DNA of 64,000 nucleotides from Liolophura sinensis (lineage: Eukaryota > Mollusca > Polyplacophora > Chitonida > Chitonidae). Shown piece after piece: positions 3,973 to 23,013 of the stretch. The notes beneath the pieces are model-generated. The model saw nothing but the letters and a program-made list of their open reading frames with translations. It searched no databases and was not told the DNA's origin. The position numbers were made by a program, and so were the translations under genes. The stretch covers positions 1,678,501-1,742,500 of the forward strand of contig NC_088295.1 of the NCBI RefSeq assembly GCF_032854445.1. Reading direction: 5' to 3'. Each line of letters opens with the position of its first letter. Position 1 is the stretch's first letter.

Positions 3973-4085
3973 CTTTGGACACAATTTGGTAACGTACGAA
4001 GGACCAACGAGGCCCTCTTCAGTCAATCAGACTGGCAATGCTGAATGTATTATCCATGTTGACTTCATGTATCGTCGATGAAGTG

Positions 4086-4308
4086 GACATGTAGTGTGTG
4101 TTTGTAGTGCTTAATCAGGACATGTAGTGTTTGTTTGTTGTGTTTAATCAAGACATATATTGTGTGTTTGTAGTGTTTAATCAAGACATGTAGTGTGTGT
4201 TTGTAGTGTTTAATCAAGACGTAGTGCGTGTTTGTAGTGTTTAGTCAGGACATGTAGTGTGTGTTTGTAGTGTTTAATCAAGACATGTAGTGTATGTTCA
4301 TAGTGTTG
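4086..4308. repeat. Minisatellite, about 33-34 bp unit, 6-7 copies
   Basis: Repeats of gacatgtagtgtgtgtttg plus tagtgtttaatcaa with small indels. Distinct in sequence from the arrays on either side. Confidence 0.85.
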
Positions 4309-14524: not shown

Positions 14525-16195
14525 TGTCACTGTTGTCACTGGATATACATTTATTGCTACCAGATATCACACTGACATGTCGTCGCTGATTAACTGCTAC
14601 TAGCTTTTACACTGTAGTCGCTCGACATACATTAGCTGCTACCGATTATCATACTGTAGTGGCTGGTTAACTTGTACAAGTTATCACACTGCAGTCGCTG
14701 GTTAGCTGCTACCTTTCATCACATTGTAGTCGCTGGTTACCTGCGACCTGTTATCGCACTGTTGCCCCTGGGCATACGTTAGCTGGTACCAGTTATCACA
14801 CTGCAGTCGCTGGTTAGCTGCTACCTGTTATCATACTGAAGTCGCTGGGCATACGCTAGCTGCTACCTGTTATCACACTGTAGTCGCTGGTTAACAGCTA
14901 CTAGTTATCACACTGTAGTCACTGAGCATACATTGGCTGCTACCTGTTATCACACTGTAGTCGCTGTTCATCACACTGTAGTGGTTGGTTAACTGGTGCC
15001 AGTTATCACACTGTAGTCCCTGGTTAGCTGCTACCTGTTATCACACTGTAGCCGCTAGGCATACGTTAGCTGCTACCTGTTATCACAGTGTAGTGGCCGG
15101 TTAACAGCTACCAGTTATCACATTGTTATCCCTGGGCTTACGTTTACTGCTACCAGTTATCACACTGTAGTGGCCGGTTAACAGCTACCAGTTATCACAC
15201 TGGAGTCACTGGACATACGTTAGATGTAACCAGTTATCACACTCTAGTGGCTGATTAACTGGTACCAGTTATCACACTGCAGTTGCCGGTTAGCTGCTAC
15301 CAGTTATCACACTGTAGTCACTGGGCATACGTTAGCTGCTACCTGTTATCACACTCTAGTCGCTGGTTAACTGCTACCAGTTATCACACTGTAGTGGCAG
15401 GTTAACTGGTTCCAGTTATCACACTGCAGTCGCTGGTTAGCTGCTACCAGTTATCACACTGTAGTCACTGGGCATACGTTAGCTGCTACCAGTTATTACA
15501 CTGTAGTCGCTGGTTAACAGCTACCAGTTATCACATTGTAATCCCTGGGTTTACGTTTACTGCTACCAGTTATCACACTGTAGTGGCTGGCAAACAGCTA
15601 CCAGTTATCACACTGTAGTCACTGGGCATACGTTAGCTGCTACCTGTTATCACACTCTAGTCGCTGGTTCACTGCTACCAGTTATCACACTGCAGTCGCT
15701 GGTTACCTGCTACCAGTTATCACACTCTAGTCGCTGGACATACGTTAGCTGCTACCTGTTATCACACTCTAGTCGTTGGTTAACAGCTACCAGTTATCAC
15801 ACTGTAGTCACTGGGCATACGTTAGCTGCTACCTGTTATCACACTGTAGTCGCTGGTTAAGAGCTACCAGTTATCACACTGTAGTCGCTGGTTAGCTGCT
15901 ACCAGTTATCACAATGTAAACGCTGGGCTTACGTTAGCTGCTACCAGTTATCACACTGTAGTCACTGGTTAACAGCTTCCTGTTATCACATTGTAATGGC
16001 TGGGCATACGTTAGCTGCTACCAGTTATCACACTCTAGTCGTTGGGTAAACGTTATCCCGGTGTAGTCGAAGGTTAGCTACTACCAGTTATCACATTGTA
16101 ATCCCTGTTTATACGTAAACTGTTACCAGCTATCACACTGTCGTCGAAGATTAACTGCTACCAATTATCCCACGGTAGTGGCCGGTTAACCTCTT
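14525..16195. repeat. Minisatellite alternating 35-bp and 42-bp units, about 45 copies
   Basis: The common core is taccagttatcacactgtag. Units end either with tcgctggttaactgc (35 bp) or with tcactgggcatacgttagctgc (about 42 bp). The two unit types alternate irregularly, so this is a two-component array. It lies just upstream of the Penelope-like remnant. Confidence 0.9.
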
Positions 16196-16479
16196 CTTCC
16201 CATGACATTTAGAGGTTGAGCTGGATTACAGAACAAATTTATGGATAACAACTTCTATTTATTCAGTGAGCGACATTTCGGTATAGGTACTGATAATGTT
16301 ATCAAGCTTAATGATCAATAGGTTACAACAATGGGTATTTTACATGCAGGCTAAGTTGTTGATTTCAAGATATGGACAAAGAGGAAACGTGCAACGGATT
16401 GACAAGATTCACAAGGGAGGGTGGCATTGTTGATTGAGCAATTGGCCAATAGATGAAACATACAAAAAACGAAACATAC

Positions 16480-17160
16480 GTCAGTTGAACAATAGCCTTT
16501 GACAACAATGGGCAAAGATGTCAGTGAGGATGAGGTGGTAGTCTAAGGTTTGTCTGCTGAGATGAGATCACTGTAGGCAGGGGGACTCAGGAATCGATTG
16601 TTTCTGTTAATATGTGACTTTGATTTCAGAATGCTTCAGCATTTCAGTGGCTTCCATCAGCTTTCTTGTACGGTGTTGGTTATATTAGTTTTCAATCGTA
16701 CGGCGGGGATTTAACTTAATATGATCTGATATGGTAGATTTAGAGTCCTGGAATTTTACTGTTCTGGTGCTTCTTGGTTATAAGTGGTAACGGCAATGTA
16801 ATGCAGGTTACATGAGCATTTCATTTCATAAATACAACCTTTGAGAGGTTGGAGGTCGTTTTCCTGAAGCGTTCAAAAGGTCTTTGAGGGTGTTACTGCT
16901 TCTGAAAATGGTATCAGTGTGGACCTGTTTTAAGAGGGGTCTTGTCTGGTTGCCGATGAAGGGGAGTATGGGGTGATGGATACTTAGCTTACAGTTTCGA
17001 TGTTGCAAGATGGCCTGATGATGTGAGAAATTATCTTGTTTTTTAGGTCCAGAGGATAGCTATTCTGTTCAGTAAATACTGTCTTCAGGTAGGCAATCTC
17101 CGAGTCTAGGGTTTATTGATTGCATCATAAATTGACGGTTCTCTTGGTTAGTTGATATGC
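16480..17160 (-). pseudogene. Penelope-like element, C-terminal part (linker and degenerate GIY-YIG)
   Basis: Read on the - strand from about 17130 downward, the frames give EIAYLKTVFTEQNSYPLDLK, then (in a different frame, 17008-16826) HHPILPFIGNQ and RSSNTLKDLL. About 20 codons further on comes GCIYEMKCSCNLHYI (about 16840-16790), and finally RRTRKLMEATEMLKH near 16660. This is the order of the Penelope-like RT C-terminus followed by the GIY-YIG endonuclease (the usual form has a YEI.C...YIG core). Several frameshifts and stops, and the loss of the G after YI, make it a pseudogene. It is separated from its RT half by the 41-bp minisatellite. Confidence 0.7.
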
Positions 17161-17165
17161 TGCCA

Positions 17166-20100
17166 AGTCTAAAAGCTGTTTTGGGCCCTGGTCTAGTTGT
17201 TGAGGTGGTCTAGAAGCTGTTTTGAGTACTGATCTGCTTGTTGAGGTGGTCTAGAAGCTGTTTTGGGTACTGGTCTAGTTGTTGAGGTGGTCTAGAAGCT
17301 GTTTTGGGTCATGGTCTAGTTGTTGAGGTGGTGTAGAAGCTGTTTTGAGTACTGATCTGCTTGTTGAGGTGGTCTAGAAGCTGTTTTGGGTCATGGTCTA
17401 GTTGTTGAGGTGGTCTAGAAGCTGTTTTGGGTTCTGGTCTGGTTGTTAAGGTGGTCTAGACGCTGTTTTGGGTACTGGTCTGGTTGTTGAGGTGGTCTAG
17501 AAGCTGTTTTGGGTACTGGTCTGGTTGTTGAGGTGGTCTAGAAGCTGTTTTGGGTCCTGGTCTGGTTGTTGAGGTGGTCTAGAAGCTGTTTTGAGTACTG
17601 ATCTGCTTGTTGAGGTGGTCTAGAAGCTGTTTTGGGTCCTGGTCTGGTTGTTGAGGTGGTCTAGAAGCTGTTTTGAGTACTGATCTGCTTGTTGAGGTGG
17701 TGTAGAAGCTGTTTTGAGTGCTGATCTGCTTGTTGAGGTGGTCTAGAAGCTGTTTTGGGTCCTGGTCTAGTTGTTGAGGTGGTCTAGAAGCTGTTTTGGG
17801 TTCTGGTCTGGTTGTTGAGGTGGTCTAGAAGCTGTTTTGGGTACTGGTCTGGTTGTTGAGGTGGTCTAGAAGCTGTTTTGGGCCCTGGTCTGGTTGTTGA
17901 GGTGGTCTAGAAGCTGTTTTGAGTACTGATCTGCTTGTTGAGGTGGTCTAGAAGCTGTTTTGGGTACTGGTCTGCTTGTTGAGGTGGTCTAGAAGCTGTT
18001 TTGGGTACTGGTCTGGTTGTTGAGGTGGTCTAGAAGCTGTTTTGGGTCCTGGTTTGGTTGTTGAGGTGGTCTAGAAGCTGTTTTGGGTGCTGGTCTGGTT
18101 GTTGAGGTGGTCTAGAAGCTGTTTTCGGTACTGGTCTGGTTGTTGAGGTGGTTTTGAAGCTGTTTTAGGTCCTGTGGCTATTGAGGTGGTCTTGAAGCTG
18201 TCTTAAGACCTAGTCTGGTTGTTGAGGTGGTGTAGAAGCTGTTTTGGGTCCTGGCCTAGTTGTTGAGGTGATCTAGAAACTGTTTGGGTCCTAGTCTAGT
18301 TGTTGAGGTGGTGTAGAAGCTGTTTTGGGTCCTGGTCTGGTTGTTGAGGTGGTCTATAAGCTGTTTTTGGTTTCCTGGTCTGGTTGTTGAGGTGGTCTAG
18401 AAGCTGTTTTGGGTGCTGGCCTAGTTGTTGAGGTGGTCTAGAAGCTGTTTTGGGTACTGGTCTGGTTGTTGAGGTGGTCTAGAAGCTGTTTTGGGTCCTG
18501 GTCTGGTTGTTGAGGTGGTCTAGAAGCTGTTTTGGGTACTGGTCTAGTTGTTGAGGTGGTCTAGAAGCTGTTTTGGGTGCTGGTCTAGTTGTTGGGGTGG
18601 TCTAGAAGCTGTTTTGGGACCTGGTCTGGTTGTTGGGGTTGTCTAGAAGCTGTTTTGGGTACTGGTCTGGTTGTTGAGGTGGTCTAGAAGCTATTTTTGG
18701 TTTCCTGGTCTGGTTGTTGAGGTGGTCTAGAAGCAGTTTTGGGCCCTGGTCTAGTTGTTGAGGTGGTCTAGAAGCTGTTTTTGGTTTCCTTGTCTGGTTG
18801 TTGAGGTGGCCTAGACGCTGTTTTGGGTCCTGGTCTAGTTGTTAAGGTGGTCTAGAAGCTGTTTTGGGTTCTGGTCTGGTTGTTGAGGTGGTCTAGAAGC
18901 TGTTTTGGGTACTGGTCTGGTTGTTGAGGTGGTCTAGAAGCTGTTTTGGGTCCTGGTCTAGTTGTTGAGGTGGTCTAGAAGCTGTTTTGGGTGCTGGTCT
19001 AGTTGTTGAGGTGGTCTAGAAGCTGTTTTGGAACCTGGTCTGGTTGTTGGGGTTGTCTAGAAGCTGTTTTGGGTACTGGTCTGGTGTTGAGGTGGTCTAG
19101 AAGCTGTTTTTGGTTTCCTGGTCTGGTTGTTGAGGTGGTCTAGAAATTGTTTTGGGCCCTGGTCTGGTTGTTGAGGTGGCCTAGGAGCTGTCTTAGGTCC
19201 TGGTCTAGTTGTTGAGGTGGTCTAGAAGCTGTTTGGGTCCTAGCCTAGTTGTTGGGGTGGTCTAGGAGCTGTTTTGGGTCATGGTCTATTTGTTGAGGTG
19301 GTCTAGAAGCTGTTTTGAGTACTGGTCTAGTTCTTAAGGTGGTCTAGAAGCAGTGTTGGGTCCTGGTCTGGTTGTTGAGGTGGTCTAGAAGCTGTTTTGG
19401 GAACCTGGTCTGGTTGTTGAGGTGGTCTAGAAGCTGTTTTGGGTACTGGTCTGGTGTTGAGGTGGTCTAGAAGCTGTTTTTTGGTTTCCTGGTCTGGTTG
19501 TTGAGGTGGTCTAGAAACTGTTTTGGGTCCTGGTCTGGTTGTTGAGGTGGTCTAGGAGCTGTCTTAGGTCCTGGTCTGGTTGTTGAGGTGGTCTAGAAGC
19601 TGTTTGGGTCCTAGCCTAGTTGTTGGGGTGGTCTAGGAGCTGTTTTGGGTCATGGTCTAGTTGTTAAGGTGGTCTAGAAGCTGTTTTGAGTACTGGTCTA
19701 GTTCTTAAGGTGGTCTAGAAGCAGTGTTGAGTCCTGGTCTGGTTGTTGAGGTGGTCTAGAAGCTGTTTTGGGTACTGGTCTGGTTGTTGAGGTGGTCTAG
19801 AAGCTGTTTTGGGTACTGGTCTAGTTGTTGAGGTGGTCTAGAAGCTGTTTTGGGTGCTGGTCTGGTTGTTGAGGTGGTCTAGAAGCTGTTTTGGGTCCTG
19901 GTCTGGTTGTTGAGGCGGTCTAGAAGCTGTTTTGGGGTACTGGTCTGGTTGTTGAGGTGGTCTAGAAGCTGTTTTGGGTCCTGGTCTAGTTGTTGAGGCG
20001 GTCTAGAAGCTGTTTTGGGTACTGGTCTGGTTGTTGAGGTGGTCTAGAAGCTGTTTTGGGTCCTGGTCTAGTTGTTGAGGTGGTCTAGAAGCTGTTTTGG

Positions 20101-20236
20101 GCCCTGTGGCTATTGAGGTGGTCTTGAAGCTGTCTTAGGTCCTGGTCTGGTTGTTGAGGTGGTGTAGAAGCTGTTTTGGGTCCTGGCCTAGTTGTTGAGG
20201 TGGTCTAGAAGCTGTTTTGGATCCTTGTCTGGTCGT
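17166..20236. repeat. Minisatellite, 41-bp unit, about 75 copies, inside a Penelope-like RT
   Basis: The unit contains ggtctagaagctgttttggg and then tcctggtctggttgttgagg. It is 41 bp long with frequent point variants, for example tactgatctgc and ctagttgttgagg. On the - strand one frame of a unit reads DPKQLLDHLNN, which is contiguous with the codons following the RT motif VDDTF at 20262-20245. The array therefore appears to have grown from the element's own coding sequence. Because 41 is not a multiple of three, the array cannot be translated as a protein repeat. Confidence 0.93.
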
Positions 20237-20766
20237 AATGTTACAAAGGTGTCGTCGACTTTCCTGATCCAACACAATGGAGAAACTAGGGATGTTTTCA
20301 GCGCAGTATTTTCCTGGTAGATCCGGAAGATTTCTCTTGTTACTGGTGATAGTGAGAACCCAATGGTACTCCATGAATTTGTTTATAGAACTCGTCACCC
20401 CACGTGATGTAGGTAGAGGCCATACAGACTGAGGGTCAGGGCGATGATGCCGTCAGTCGACATGGTAGTGTTCAGTATTGTCTCACAGTTAATTGGCGGG
20501 TAATCTTGGGTGAAGAGGTAAACTACTTCGTAGCTCACAAGTTGCTTGAAACGGTCGATATCTTTTATCTGGTTACAGAAGTTGGTGGAGTCTTTAACAA
20601 ATGAACTGAAAGTTTTGCAGAGAGGCGACAATACTTTGCTGAGGTATCGGGCTGCATCATAGTAGACGGTGTCTATACTGCAAACTAATAGCCGGGCTTT
20701 GATAGAACCTTTGTGCAACTTTATAGTTGCTCTGGCTTCGGGAGGGCGTGGGTGGTGGTAAAACAC
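20237..20766 (-). pseudogene. Penelope-like element, reverse-transcriptase core
   Basis: On the - strand the frames give ARYLSKVLSPLCKTF, then KDIDRFKQLVSYEVVYLFT (RT motif A region, about 20560-20515), then in a shifted frame YKQIHGVPLGS (motif B region, about 20385-20354), and then KVDDTFVTL (catalytic motif C, 20262-20237). This order and wording fit Penelope-like RTs. The reading frame changes at least twice and stop codons intervene, so it is inactive. The 5' end of the element is missing: a tail of SINE family S1 (about 20758-20789) immediately adjoins. The rest of the RT is lost or replaced by the minisatellite, and the C-terminus reappears below 17160. Confidence 0.75.
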
Positions 20767-20789
20767 CAGTCAAATAAATGAATAAATAG
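20758..20789 (+). mobile_element. SINE S1, 3' end only
   Basis: gtaaaacaccagtcaaat followed by an AAAT-like tail matches only the last 30 bp of S1. Heavily 5'-truncated. Confidence 0.5.
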
Positions 20790-21010
20790 CCGTGGACACA
20801 TCAAAGTCAGAATCGGTAAACGATCTTTTAACAGTAATCCAGAATTGAACTTCCGACAAGAAATGTAAGAGCTGGCGGTTTAAAAAATGTCTTGTCCTCA
20901 TAATTTTTTTATATTTGGTCCTTCAACTATTCGATTTCGTGCTCAAGAAATCTTTCCTTCAAACACCTGTGGGTTCAAATGGCCGTGGACTTGATTTCGA
21001 CGAGAGTTCA
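20790..21010. other. Unique sequence
   Basis: Nothing recognisable. Confidence 0.3.
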
Positions 21011-21011
21011 G

Positions 21012-21230
21012 ATAGCACCTGGTCGGTTTTACCCAGGTTCTAGCGGTTTCTCACGGTACCTGCATGGTTGGTTTTTCAGGTTCTAGCGGTTTATCGGAAA
21101 CCAGACGAGATAGTTTGGCACGATACCTGGTCGGTTTTTCCCGGGTTTTAGATGTTTATCAGAAACCAAACAAGGTTTCTAGAGTACCTGGTCAGTTTTT
21201 TCAGGAATCTTTCTGGTTTTACCTGGATGC
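21012..21230. repeat. Imperfect repeat of about 42-65 bp, 4 copies
   Basis: The block acctggtcggtttttccc, then aggttctagcggtttatc, then gaaaccagac is repeated with strong divergence starting near 21016, 21058, 21124 and 21185. An old, decaying small array. Confidence 0.65.
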
Positions 21231-22477
21231 CACAAGCATTTCCGGAACCGGTATTTTCGAAATAAGTCAAGGTCAACGGTCTTGCTGTTCTGATAATAAC
21301 GTAAAACTTCTTTCCCACGATAATGCTTTCTTTGCTAAGGTCAACACCGTTGCCTGAAGACACTGATAAAATAAAATATAGCAGAAAAAATATGAACATT
21401 AGATAAGGCGTCTAAACATTGTGGCTATTTGTAAAATAAAGTACAGCAAACCATATGTTCATGTTCTAGAACCTGATCTGTGGCGAAATAATGCAAACAA
21501 ACAAAAACGCGTCATGAGTGAATGACATTGGTTGTAGTTCTCATGAACCAACAACTTTTTGTTATTACAAGTTATTACCACAAAATTAAACTATATTTTA
21601 CATTGAATGTCATACTCTTCTGGGTAAATATGGACGGTGTGTTCAGAATGTCTGGCGCCCCATTTAATAATTACCCACACTTTTTCATAGCCCGGGCTAG
21701 GTACGAATCGTGTTGAATTGAATCACCACGTTGGAGATATAAATTGCTGTAGCTGCAGATGCAGTTTTTGATTAACGACAGCTTATAAACAAGCATGGTA
21801 CACCATTTGGAAACTTGGAAACGCTCCTGAGGAACATTACTTGCGTCTTTCCGGCATCATTTAAAACTGTTGACCACTCCTTATTACATGGCTACGTCGA
21901 AATTTCTTGCTTTCTTGCTACTTTGGCGGTTTGTGCTCAGCGTTCTTTGAGAAATCGGTCTTGTGATTACTGACTACGTATGTCCATTATAGATGATGAC
22001 TGCAAAACGAATGTATGCCAGGGCGGCTAGATTTTATTCTTTTCCCGCTATTTCTACATGCTAGAGGATAAACATATAATTATGTTGAAACATTCCTGTA
22101 AGATGGCACTAAAAGAAAATGCTAATCGTGTTCGATGGATCCGTGTCACAAATTGTGTTAATTATCCAGCAATTAATTTGAACAGAACTCACTTCTTTCC
22201 TTGATCGACAGGAAGTGTGATATGAGATTAGAACAGCATAAATACGGCATGTATTTGAAAAAAACATTATCGCGTTAATATGTGTTACATGTATTTCTAG
22301 CGGCTTAACGATTTCCCAGAAGCCAACGGGTAGATACGATAAAATTCTGCTGAGCAGAAGATACATTTTTAAATATAATAAGAAAGAACAGCTGCTCATA
22401 TGCATCCTGGACTATATTATATCAGTCCCAGATACACTTGTATTTCTCAGAACAAATACTTCCAAGGGTCTGTCAGC
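21231..22477. other. No gene recognised
   Basis: AT-rich unique sequence. Short open frames on both strands without similarity that can be named. Confidence 0.35.
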
Positions 22478-22600
22478 AACCTGCGGATGTCGTGTGTTTC
22501 CACCTTGTCCTGCCCAGTTTCTTCCCACCACAATGCTGGCAGCCGTCGTATAAGTGACAATAAATAAATAAATACTTGAAAATAAATAAATAAAGTGAAA
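22478..22600 (+). mobile_element. SINE-like repeat S1, + orientation
   Basis: Contains cctgcggatgtcgtgtg, cagtttcttcccaccac, aatgctggcagccgtcgta and taagtgac, running straight into (AAAT)n. The block between taagtgaaatatt and the tail is deleted relative to other copies. Confidence 0.65.
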
Positions 22601-22707
22601 AGTTGTGAGTAGTGGTGTCTTTAGTCTTTTTCAGTTCGGCACTCCATCATGGTCTTATATAATACACAAATCTAGCCTTATATTTCACGTTTTGTTATAA
22701 ACTACGA

Positions 22708-22925
22708 CCACTATATTTATTTGTTTATTTATTTATTTATTTATTTATTTGATTGGTGTTTTACGCCGTACTGAAGAATATTTCACTTATACAACGGCGG
22801 CCAGCATTATTGTGGGTGGAAACTTGGCACAGCCCGGGGGAAACCTACGACCATCCGCAAGTTACTTTCCACTTCCACGGCCGGAGAGGAAGCCAGCAAC
22901 GACCGCTATATGTCCCGATCGTGAC
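22708..22925 (-). mobile_element. SINE-like repeat S1, - orientation, longest copy
   Basis: Starts on the + strand with (TTTA)n, then gattggtgttttacgccgta, cacttatacaacggcggcc, agcattattgtgggtgg, cagcccgggggaaacctacg and ggccggagaggaagccagc. This is the most complete S1 copy here and defines the family. No clear tRNA-like head remains. Confidence 0.75.
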
Positions 22926-23013
22926 ACAAATATTGTCATAGATCTTTTTCATTGATGTTGTATGGCACAGATAAATGTACACAGATTGCGATGGGAAGAC
23001 AAAGCATTGCCCA

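What the first reader, a model, noticed from the sequence alone, without database searches (positions are those of the whole stretch)
16480..20766. A 3.1 kb minisatellite that arose from, and splits, a Penelope-like reverse transcriptase
Seen: on the - strand, RT motifs A, B (GVPLGS) and C (KVDDTF) run into DPKQLLDHLNN, and that short coding segment is the 41-bp repeat unit, present about 75 times. On the far side of the array the same element resumes at EIAYLKTVF and its degenerate GIY-YIG tail, about 90 residues' worth of RT having been lost. Inference: local duplication of RT coding DNA just after the catalytic VDD seeded the array, while the flanking RT part was deleted.
Basis: partly seen in the sequence, partly recalled or inferred. 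Interest (0 to 1): 0.75.

Follow-up and report, generated by a model that had tools for sequence, protein, structure and literature searches.

The report
Minisatellite born inside a dead retrotransposon
About 75 tandem copies of a 41-letter DNA unit grew out of the reverse-transcriptase gene of an old, broken jumping element; it is a clear case of a known way in which such repeats are born, and a second array of the same unit elsewhere in the genome means it either happened twice or was copied.

Summary
Window 17167-20233 is a 41-bp array of 74.8 copies inside a decayed Penelope-like reverse transcriptase (minus strand, homology about 20766-16202). The first unit is the element's own sequence just after the catalytic VDD. 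Array-free relatives in the same genome carry it once and read on into normal RT. In the two array-free copies that keep both edges, ACCA recurs exactly 41 bp apart where units join, as the short-direct-repeat model of minisatellite birth predicts (Haber and Louis, via passages of PMC6947457). Corrections: 166-180 bp of RT (55-60 codons) is missing, not 90 residues; homology resumes about 20 residues before EIAYLKTVF; and a second array (40.1 copies) lies in another copy of the element on C3, with a different 3' break and about 288 bp missing. So the deletion was not part of one founding event. One birth then copying, or two births, is unresolved. The array is out of frame and probably functionless. 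New member of a known kind; modest interest.

The parts
17167..20233 (-). 41-bp minisatellite, 74.8 copies; unit consensus (minus strand) ACCAGGACCCAAAACAGCTTCTAGACCACCTCAACAACCAG
   Evidence: TRF; unit parsing; 73 units carry 169 substitutions in 2982 sites against the consensus (5.7%)
20188..20236 (-). leading fragment and first, native unit: continuous with the RT reading frame after VDDTFVTLRPDK
   Evidence: aligned with array-free L030 near 4067-4115
20234..20766 (-). 5' remnant of the Penelope-like RT: YYDAARYLSKVLSPL, SYEVVYLFTQ and KVDDTF in one frame, GVPLGS in another
   Evidence: protein search: 42 matches including itself, the best relative at 63% identity over query residues 1-81
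16202..17166 (-). 3' remnant of the same element: end of the RT (including EIAYLKTVF), degenerate GIY-YIG-like tail (by eye) and 3' UTR
   Evidence: blastn with L030 4283-5293, 73.8% over 1046 columns
17164..17168 (-). 3' array/element junction: truncated last unit joined to sequence matching L030 from 4281; 166-180 bp of RT missing

Best explanation
The array is a minisatellite born inside the RT gene of an old Penelope-like retrotransposon family. SHOWN: the unit is the element's own coding DNA just after motif C; array-free copies carry it once; ACCA recurs exactly one period (41 bp) apart in the two array-free copies that keep both edges; the seam between units reads as the right-hand neighbourhood of that repeat running into the left-hand one. 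INFERRED: slipped-strand replication or unequal exchange between the two short repeats made a two-copy duplication. Further unequal exchange or conversion expanded it to about 75 copies here and about 40 on C3, with local re-duplication (similarity at lag 123 bp over 885 bp). Separate or stepwise deletions removed the RT stretch on the 3' side in each copy. The array codes for nothing (41 is not a multiple of 3) and is most likely neutral.
For: Array and flanks. Array-free copies L030, L032, C11/L081 and C9/L083. ACCA pair at spacing 41 in L030 and L032; in L030 it extends to ACGACCAA/ACAACCAA, 7 of 8. C11 has lost the left edge by an internal deletion that ends at the unit boundary, and shows CAGACCAGGACCC at the left of its unit. 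Protein level: DPKQLLDHLNN against NPQSLLDHLNT and DPSALLDHLNS in relatives. Doubled unit against L032: 89.6% over 48 bp, E 2e-13. Age: units differ from the consensus by about 6% in both arrays, against flank tip branches of about 0.07-0.11, so the arrays are old. Different 3' junctions. Local re-duplication.
Against: The short repeat is modest (4-8 bp). In a 210-bp stretch of L030 at least seven other spacings between 10 and 119 bp score as high or higher (only the top eight printed), so its strength alone is not unusual; the argument rests on its position at the seam. In L032 no 8-base window reaches 6 of 8 matches at spacing 41; only the shorter AACCA repeats. The two-copy stage was not found. 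L076-type relatives appear by eye to carry an 8-bp repeat (CAACACCA) about 45 bp apart at the same place (sequence; spacing counted by hand) but show no array, so a short repeat is not sufficient.
Confidence: 0.85

Rival explanations
1. One birth, then copying (a finer version of the best explanation): a few units arose in one element or its source lineage, that array-bearing sequence was copied to a second place by retrotransposition or DNA duplication, and each array then grew on its own.
For: Identical 41/41 consensus in both arrays. Units are as alike between arrays (0.878) as within C3 (0.874). Frequency-weighted sharing of unit variants exceeds label shuffles (P 0.0018; 0.016 without the commonest shared variant, 0.027 without three). 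Unit divergence is near the age of the copies.
Against: The unweighted variant-sharing test, done first, is not significant (7 shared, 4.5 expected, P 0.11). Only 1 exact unit type is shared, the consensus itself. The flank tree is star-like; its best topology pairs the window with L032, and the three topologies with window+C3 have AU P 0.53, 0.25 and 0.11. Window 15001-23000 and L029 share no DNA outside the element except SINE-like and TATT-like stretches.
Confidence: 0.5
2. Two births (the other finer version): the ACCA pair 41 bp apart is a weak hot spot, and two different copies of the family each gave rise to an array with the same unit.
For: The seed repeat is present in array-free copies, so any copy could produce the same period and seam. 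The flank tree shows no window+C3 lineage. The region is prone to minisatellites: 27.6% of this window lies in 24 arrays.
Against: Arrays of this unit are rare: among 35 other loci counted by hand, six matches span the unit and each matches it once. Weighted sharing of variants.
Confidence: 0.4
3. The array is older than the element or independent of it, and the element inserted into or beside it.
For: None found.
Against: The unit is homologous to the RT codons at its own position and in register on the 5' side, in this copy and in the C3 copy; no array of this unit outside the element at up to 2 mismatches in 29 bases.
Confidence: 0.02
4. The array is maintained by selection, for example as a coding repeat or a small-RNA source.
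For: TE-derived tandem repeats that yield piRNAs are described for Drosophila virilis Helitron-2 (PMC12910113, passages); nothing here bears on it directly.
Against: Out-of-frame period with stop codons, copy-number and junction differences between the two loci, no Rfam match at gathering score in the window or in five loci.
Confidence: 0.05

Closest known systems
Minisatellites seeded by short direct repeats (Haber and Louis 1998; the paper itself not read, taken from passages of PMC6947457 and PMC3389668)
   Same: Unit bounded by a short direct repeat in the unduplicated sequence; tandem growth afterwards.
   Different: Here the repeat is at or below the low end (4-8 bp; the review quotes 5-10 bp), and the seed lies in retroelement coding DNA.
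TE-derived tandem repeats listed in PMC9659126 (passages and table rows), including LINE-1 ORF2-derived Pvc20 and CR1-derived HinfI
   Same: Tandem repeat derived from a retrotransposon, in some cases from its ORF.
   Different: The source is a Penelope-like element (the word Penelope occurs 0 times in that paper's main text), and the unit is a 41-bp piece of the RT core.
Soybean Gmr9/GmOgre-associated minisatellites (PMC9659126 table row)
   Same: Minisatellite inside a retrotransposon family.
   Different: LTR element, in the stretch between 3' UTR and LTR; here in RT coding DNA, and only two loci were found with the array.
Asparagine-rich insertions between RT core and thumb in Adineta vaga Pen3/Pen4 (PMC3846280, passages)
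   Same: Extra repetitive DNA near the RT core/thumb border of a Penelope element.
   Different: Those are described as keeping a coding frame; here the copy is dead, and the array is a 41-bp out-of-frame tandem.

Membership tests
Minisatellite seeded by short direct repeats | Unduplicated ancestral sequence carries the unit once | tested here: met
   L030, L032, C11/L081 and, more divergently, C9/L083
Minisatellite seeded by short direct repeats | Short direct repeat spaced by exactly one period at the unit seam | tested here: met
   ACCA at spacing 41 in L030 and L032, the two array-free copies with both edges; 7 of 8 bases in L030. Not exceptional in strength within L030; no 8-base window at 6 of 8 in L032
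Minisatellite seeded by short direct repeats | Two-copy founder allele | not testable with these tools
   Needs sister species or population data
Penelope-like element | Penelope-type RT | tested here: inconclusive
   An RT is met: intact relative L076 hits RVT_1 over its cut-off (33.9 against 29.6 bits), L072 just under it (28.9); the two window fragments alone hit nothing. The window piece finds these relatives in the genome. The assignment to Penelope among RT classes rests on recalled motifs and was not tested with a tree
Penelope-like element | C-terminal GIY-YIG endonuclease | tested here: inconclusive
   By eye, GVVYQLKCSCNNSYIGETGRPL in L076 and a degenerate counterpart in the window; no Pfam GIY-YIG hit
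Penelope-like element | Pseudo-LTRs, partial tandem or inverted ends | tested here: inconclusive
   L032 carries an inverted piece of the element's 3' end next to its RT piece; no such piece was noted for the window copy, and the ends were not mapped
Penelope-like element | Hammerhead ribozyme (found in some members, not defining) | tested here: inconclusive
   No Rfam match at gathering score in the window or in L029, L030, L032, L062, L076; the copies are partial

The most novel reading that the evidence does not exclude
An RT-disrupting minisatellite travelled with its retrotransposon: a short array born in the catalytic region of one Penelope-like element was itself copied to a second locus (helped in trans by intact elements), so that the retroelement dispersed a minisatellite that had already destroyed its own reverse transcriptase.
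Probability: 0.3. Interest if true: 0.45.

Novelty: new member of a known kind. Interest (0 to 1): 0.3.

Why it matters
It is a clean natural test of the short-direct-repeat model of minisatellite birth: ancestral single-copy sequence, seed repeat, period and seam can all be read in one genome, in two arrays. It adds a Penelope-like RT core to the transposable-element parts known to seed tandem repeats. Beyond that it is ordinary, in a region where over a quarter of the DNA is minisatellite.

Tried and rejected
Rfam on the window and five loci for ribozymes: nothing at gathering score. Pfam for a GIY-YIG domain in an intact relative: nothing. PDB sequence search with that relative: one weak match to an RNA-directed DNA polymerase chain (8bgj_A, E 0.0044), not used. 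Tree of five family copies to tell one birth from two: unresolved (a sixth copy, C9, was aligned in one block and dropped before the tree). Unweighted variant-sharing test: not significant; the weighted test is, but it was chosen after seeing the first. Units of the window's arrays (period at least 10, at least 3 copies) against L029, L030, L032 and L062-L080: only rows from this array matched. TRF on L030, L032 and the 19 relatives L062-L080: arrays elsewhere in several, none at the unit. C11, C13 and C9 (L081-L083) were read, not run through TRF; the C13 piece (L082) does not reach the unit.

Papers. Search listings: 5 papers; 10; 6; 4; 3; 8 listed of 20. Passages only: PMC6947457, PMC3389668, PMC3833285, PMC9659126, PMC12910113, PMC3846280, PMC11167929. 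In what I saw, none describes an RT-derived Penelope minisatellite; this is not proof of absence from print.

Full report
WHAT IS THERE. TRF finds a 41-bp array at 17167-20233 with 74.8 copies and 89% matches. On the minus strand the 5' flank (20766-20234) encodes pieces of a Penelope-like reverse transcriptase: YYDAARYLSKVLSPL, SYEVVYLFTQ and KVDDTFVTL in one frame and GVPLGS in another. The naming of these motifs is recalled knowledge. The array begins as the direct continuation of the VDD frame (DPKQLLDHLNN). Because 41 is not a multiple of three the frame rotates, and a stop follows the first unit. The 3' flank (17166-16202) is the rest of the element, with EIAYLKTVF and a degenerate tail.

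ARRAY-FREE RELATIVES. A unit pattern search (29 bases, up to 2 mismatches) found 96 matches: 95 in the window array and in a second array on C3 (matches at 4180966-4182535; TRF array L029 3964-5631, 40.1 copies), and one at C6:57415083; the reversed control pattern gave 0. The C6 locus (L030) is an array-free copy: the window's 5' flank, unit and 3' flank align to it in order (3' flank 73.8% over 1046 columns). It reads VDDTFATLRPNQGPKQLLNHLNNQHSRTKFTMETEVNQQLPFLDV in one frame. Further array-free copies are L032 (C6:80969487), C11 (L081) and, more divergent, C9 (L083). A DNA census with 971 bases of L030 gave 121 rows, most of them single array units. By my hand count they include 35 loci besides the two arrays, L030 itself and more distant relatives among them; six of the 35 match across the unit, each once (40 of 41 candidates scored, and the tool calls such counts lower bounds). 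A protein search with the 97-residue RT piece gave 42 matches, the window itself included. Of 19 relatives read (L062-L080), VDD could be found in 17; 13 of these show LLDHLN or LLDHLD right after it, 2 are frameshifted, 1 has a short deletion and 1 diverges. None of the 19 has a TRF array at that place.

HOW IT STARTED. In L030 and in L032, the two array-free copies with both edges, ACCA occurs at two places exactly 41 bp apart, at the seam of the array units; in L030 the match extends to 7 of 8 bases (ACGACCAA/ACAACCAA). The array seam CAACAACCAGACCAGG is the right-hand neighbourhood (CAACAACCA) running into the left-hand one (ACCAGACC...); C11 shows CAGACCAGGACCC at the left of its unit. 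This is what slippage or unequal exchange between the two short repeats would produce, the model of Haber and Louis as summarised in PMC6947457 (passages). Against this: in L030 at least seven other spacings have repeats as good or better, and in L032 no 8-base window reaches 6 of 8 at spacing 41. The argument rests on position and not on strength. C11 shows another event at the same edge: an internal deletion that ends at the unit boundary.

HOW IT GREW AND DECAYED. The 73 window units after the first differ from the consensus at 169 of 2982 sites (5.7%), and 39 C3 units at 92 of 1595 (5.8%). The flanks' tip branches are about 0.07-0.11 in a star-like tree, so the arrays are old, with some later turnover. 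A stretch at 18174-17290 matches itself at a 123-bp lag over 885 bp (824 identical), the mark of local re-duplication. On the 3' side the window array ends in a truncated unit joined to sequence matching L030 from 4281; 166 or 180 bp are missing, depending on how the partial unit is counted. The C3 array ends after a full unit and resumes near L030 4403, with 288 bp missing. The deletions are therefore separate or stepwise, not one founding event.

ONE BIRTH OR TWO. For one birth: identical consensus, between-array unit identity (0.878) equal to that within C3 (0.874; window 0.897), and frequency-weighted sharing of unit variants (P 0.0018; 0.016 to 0.027 after dropping top variants). Against: the unweighted test, done first, gives P 0.11; only the consensus unit itself is shared exactly; the flank tree does not group the two copies and cannot reject it (AU test); and the compared stretches share no DNA outside the element except SINE-like and TATT-like repeats. 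I leave it open, slightly in favour of one birth.

CONTEXT. 27.6% of the window is in TRF arrays of period 10 or more with at least three copies, at 24 places. The array is one of many here; what sets it apart is that its source can still be read. A review of TE-derived repeats lists ORF-derived satellites from LINE-1 and CR1, but the word Penelope does not occur in its main text (PMC9659126, passages). Adineta vaga Penelope elements carry asparagine-rich insertions between the RT core and the thumb (PMC3846280, passages).

VERDICT. A well-documented new case of a known process; interest 0.3.

Noticed in passing
L032 2375-3230 (C6 about 80970361-80971216): A second minisatellite (53-bp and related periods) begins at the 3' end of another copy of the same element family: about half of its unit matches the window element's 3' end at 16254-16228 (26 of 27 bases). 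The family may thus have seeded two different minisatellites.
   Followed up: partly
window 1-64000: 27.6% of the window lies in 24 minisatellite arrays (period 10 or more, at least 3 copies). Their sources were not traced beyond a comparison with the fetched element copies.
   Followed up: partly
window 22729-22898; L030 3722-3907; several places in L029: A high-copy SINE-like repeat (TTTATTTGATTGGTGTTTTACGCC...): 45 of 47 rows of one genome search fall on it (76-93% identity). It interrupts L030, and a related insert in the C3 copy's 5' flank shows an apparent target-site duplication AATATCCCAGTC (by eye). From memory it resembles a bivalve SINE; the host was not identified.
   Followed up: no
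L076-L078, L080, just after VDD: Another Penelope-like subfamily carries an 8-bp repeat (CAACACCA) about 45 bp apart at the same RT position (sequence, spacing counted by hand) and has no array: a natural control for how rarely such seeds expand.
   Followed up: no
L032 1277-1501: Inverted piece of the element's 3' end next to the RT piece, like the inverted pseudo-LTR arrangements described for Penelope elements in PMC3846280 (passages).
   Followed up: no
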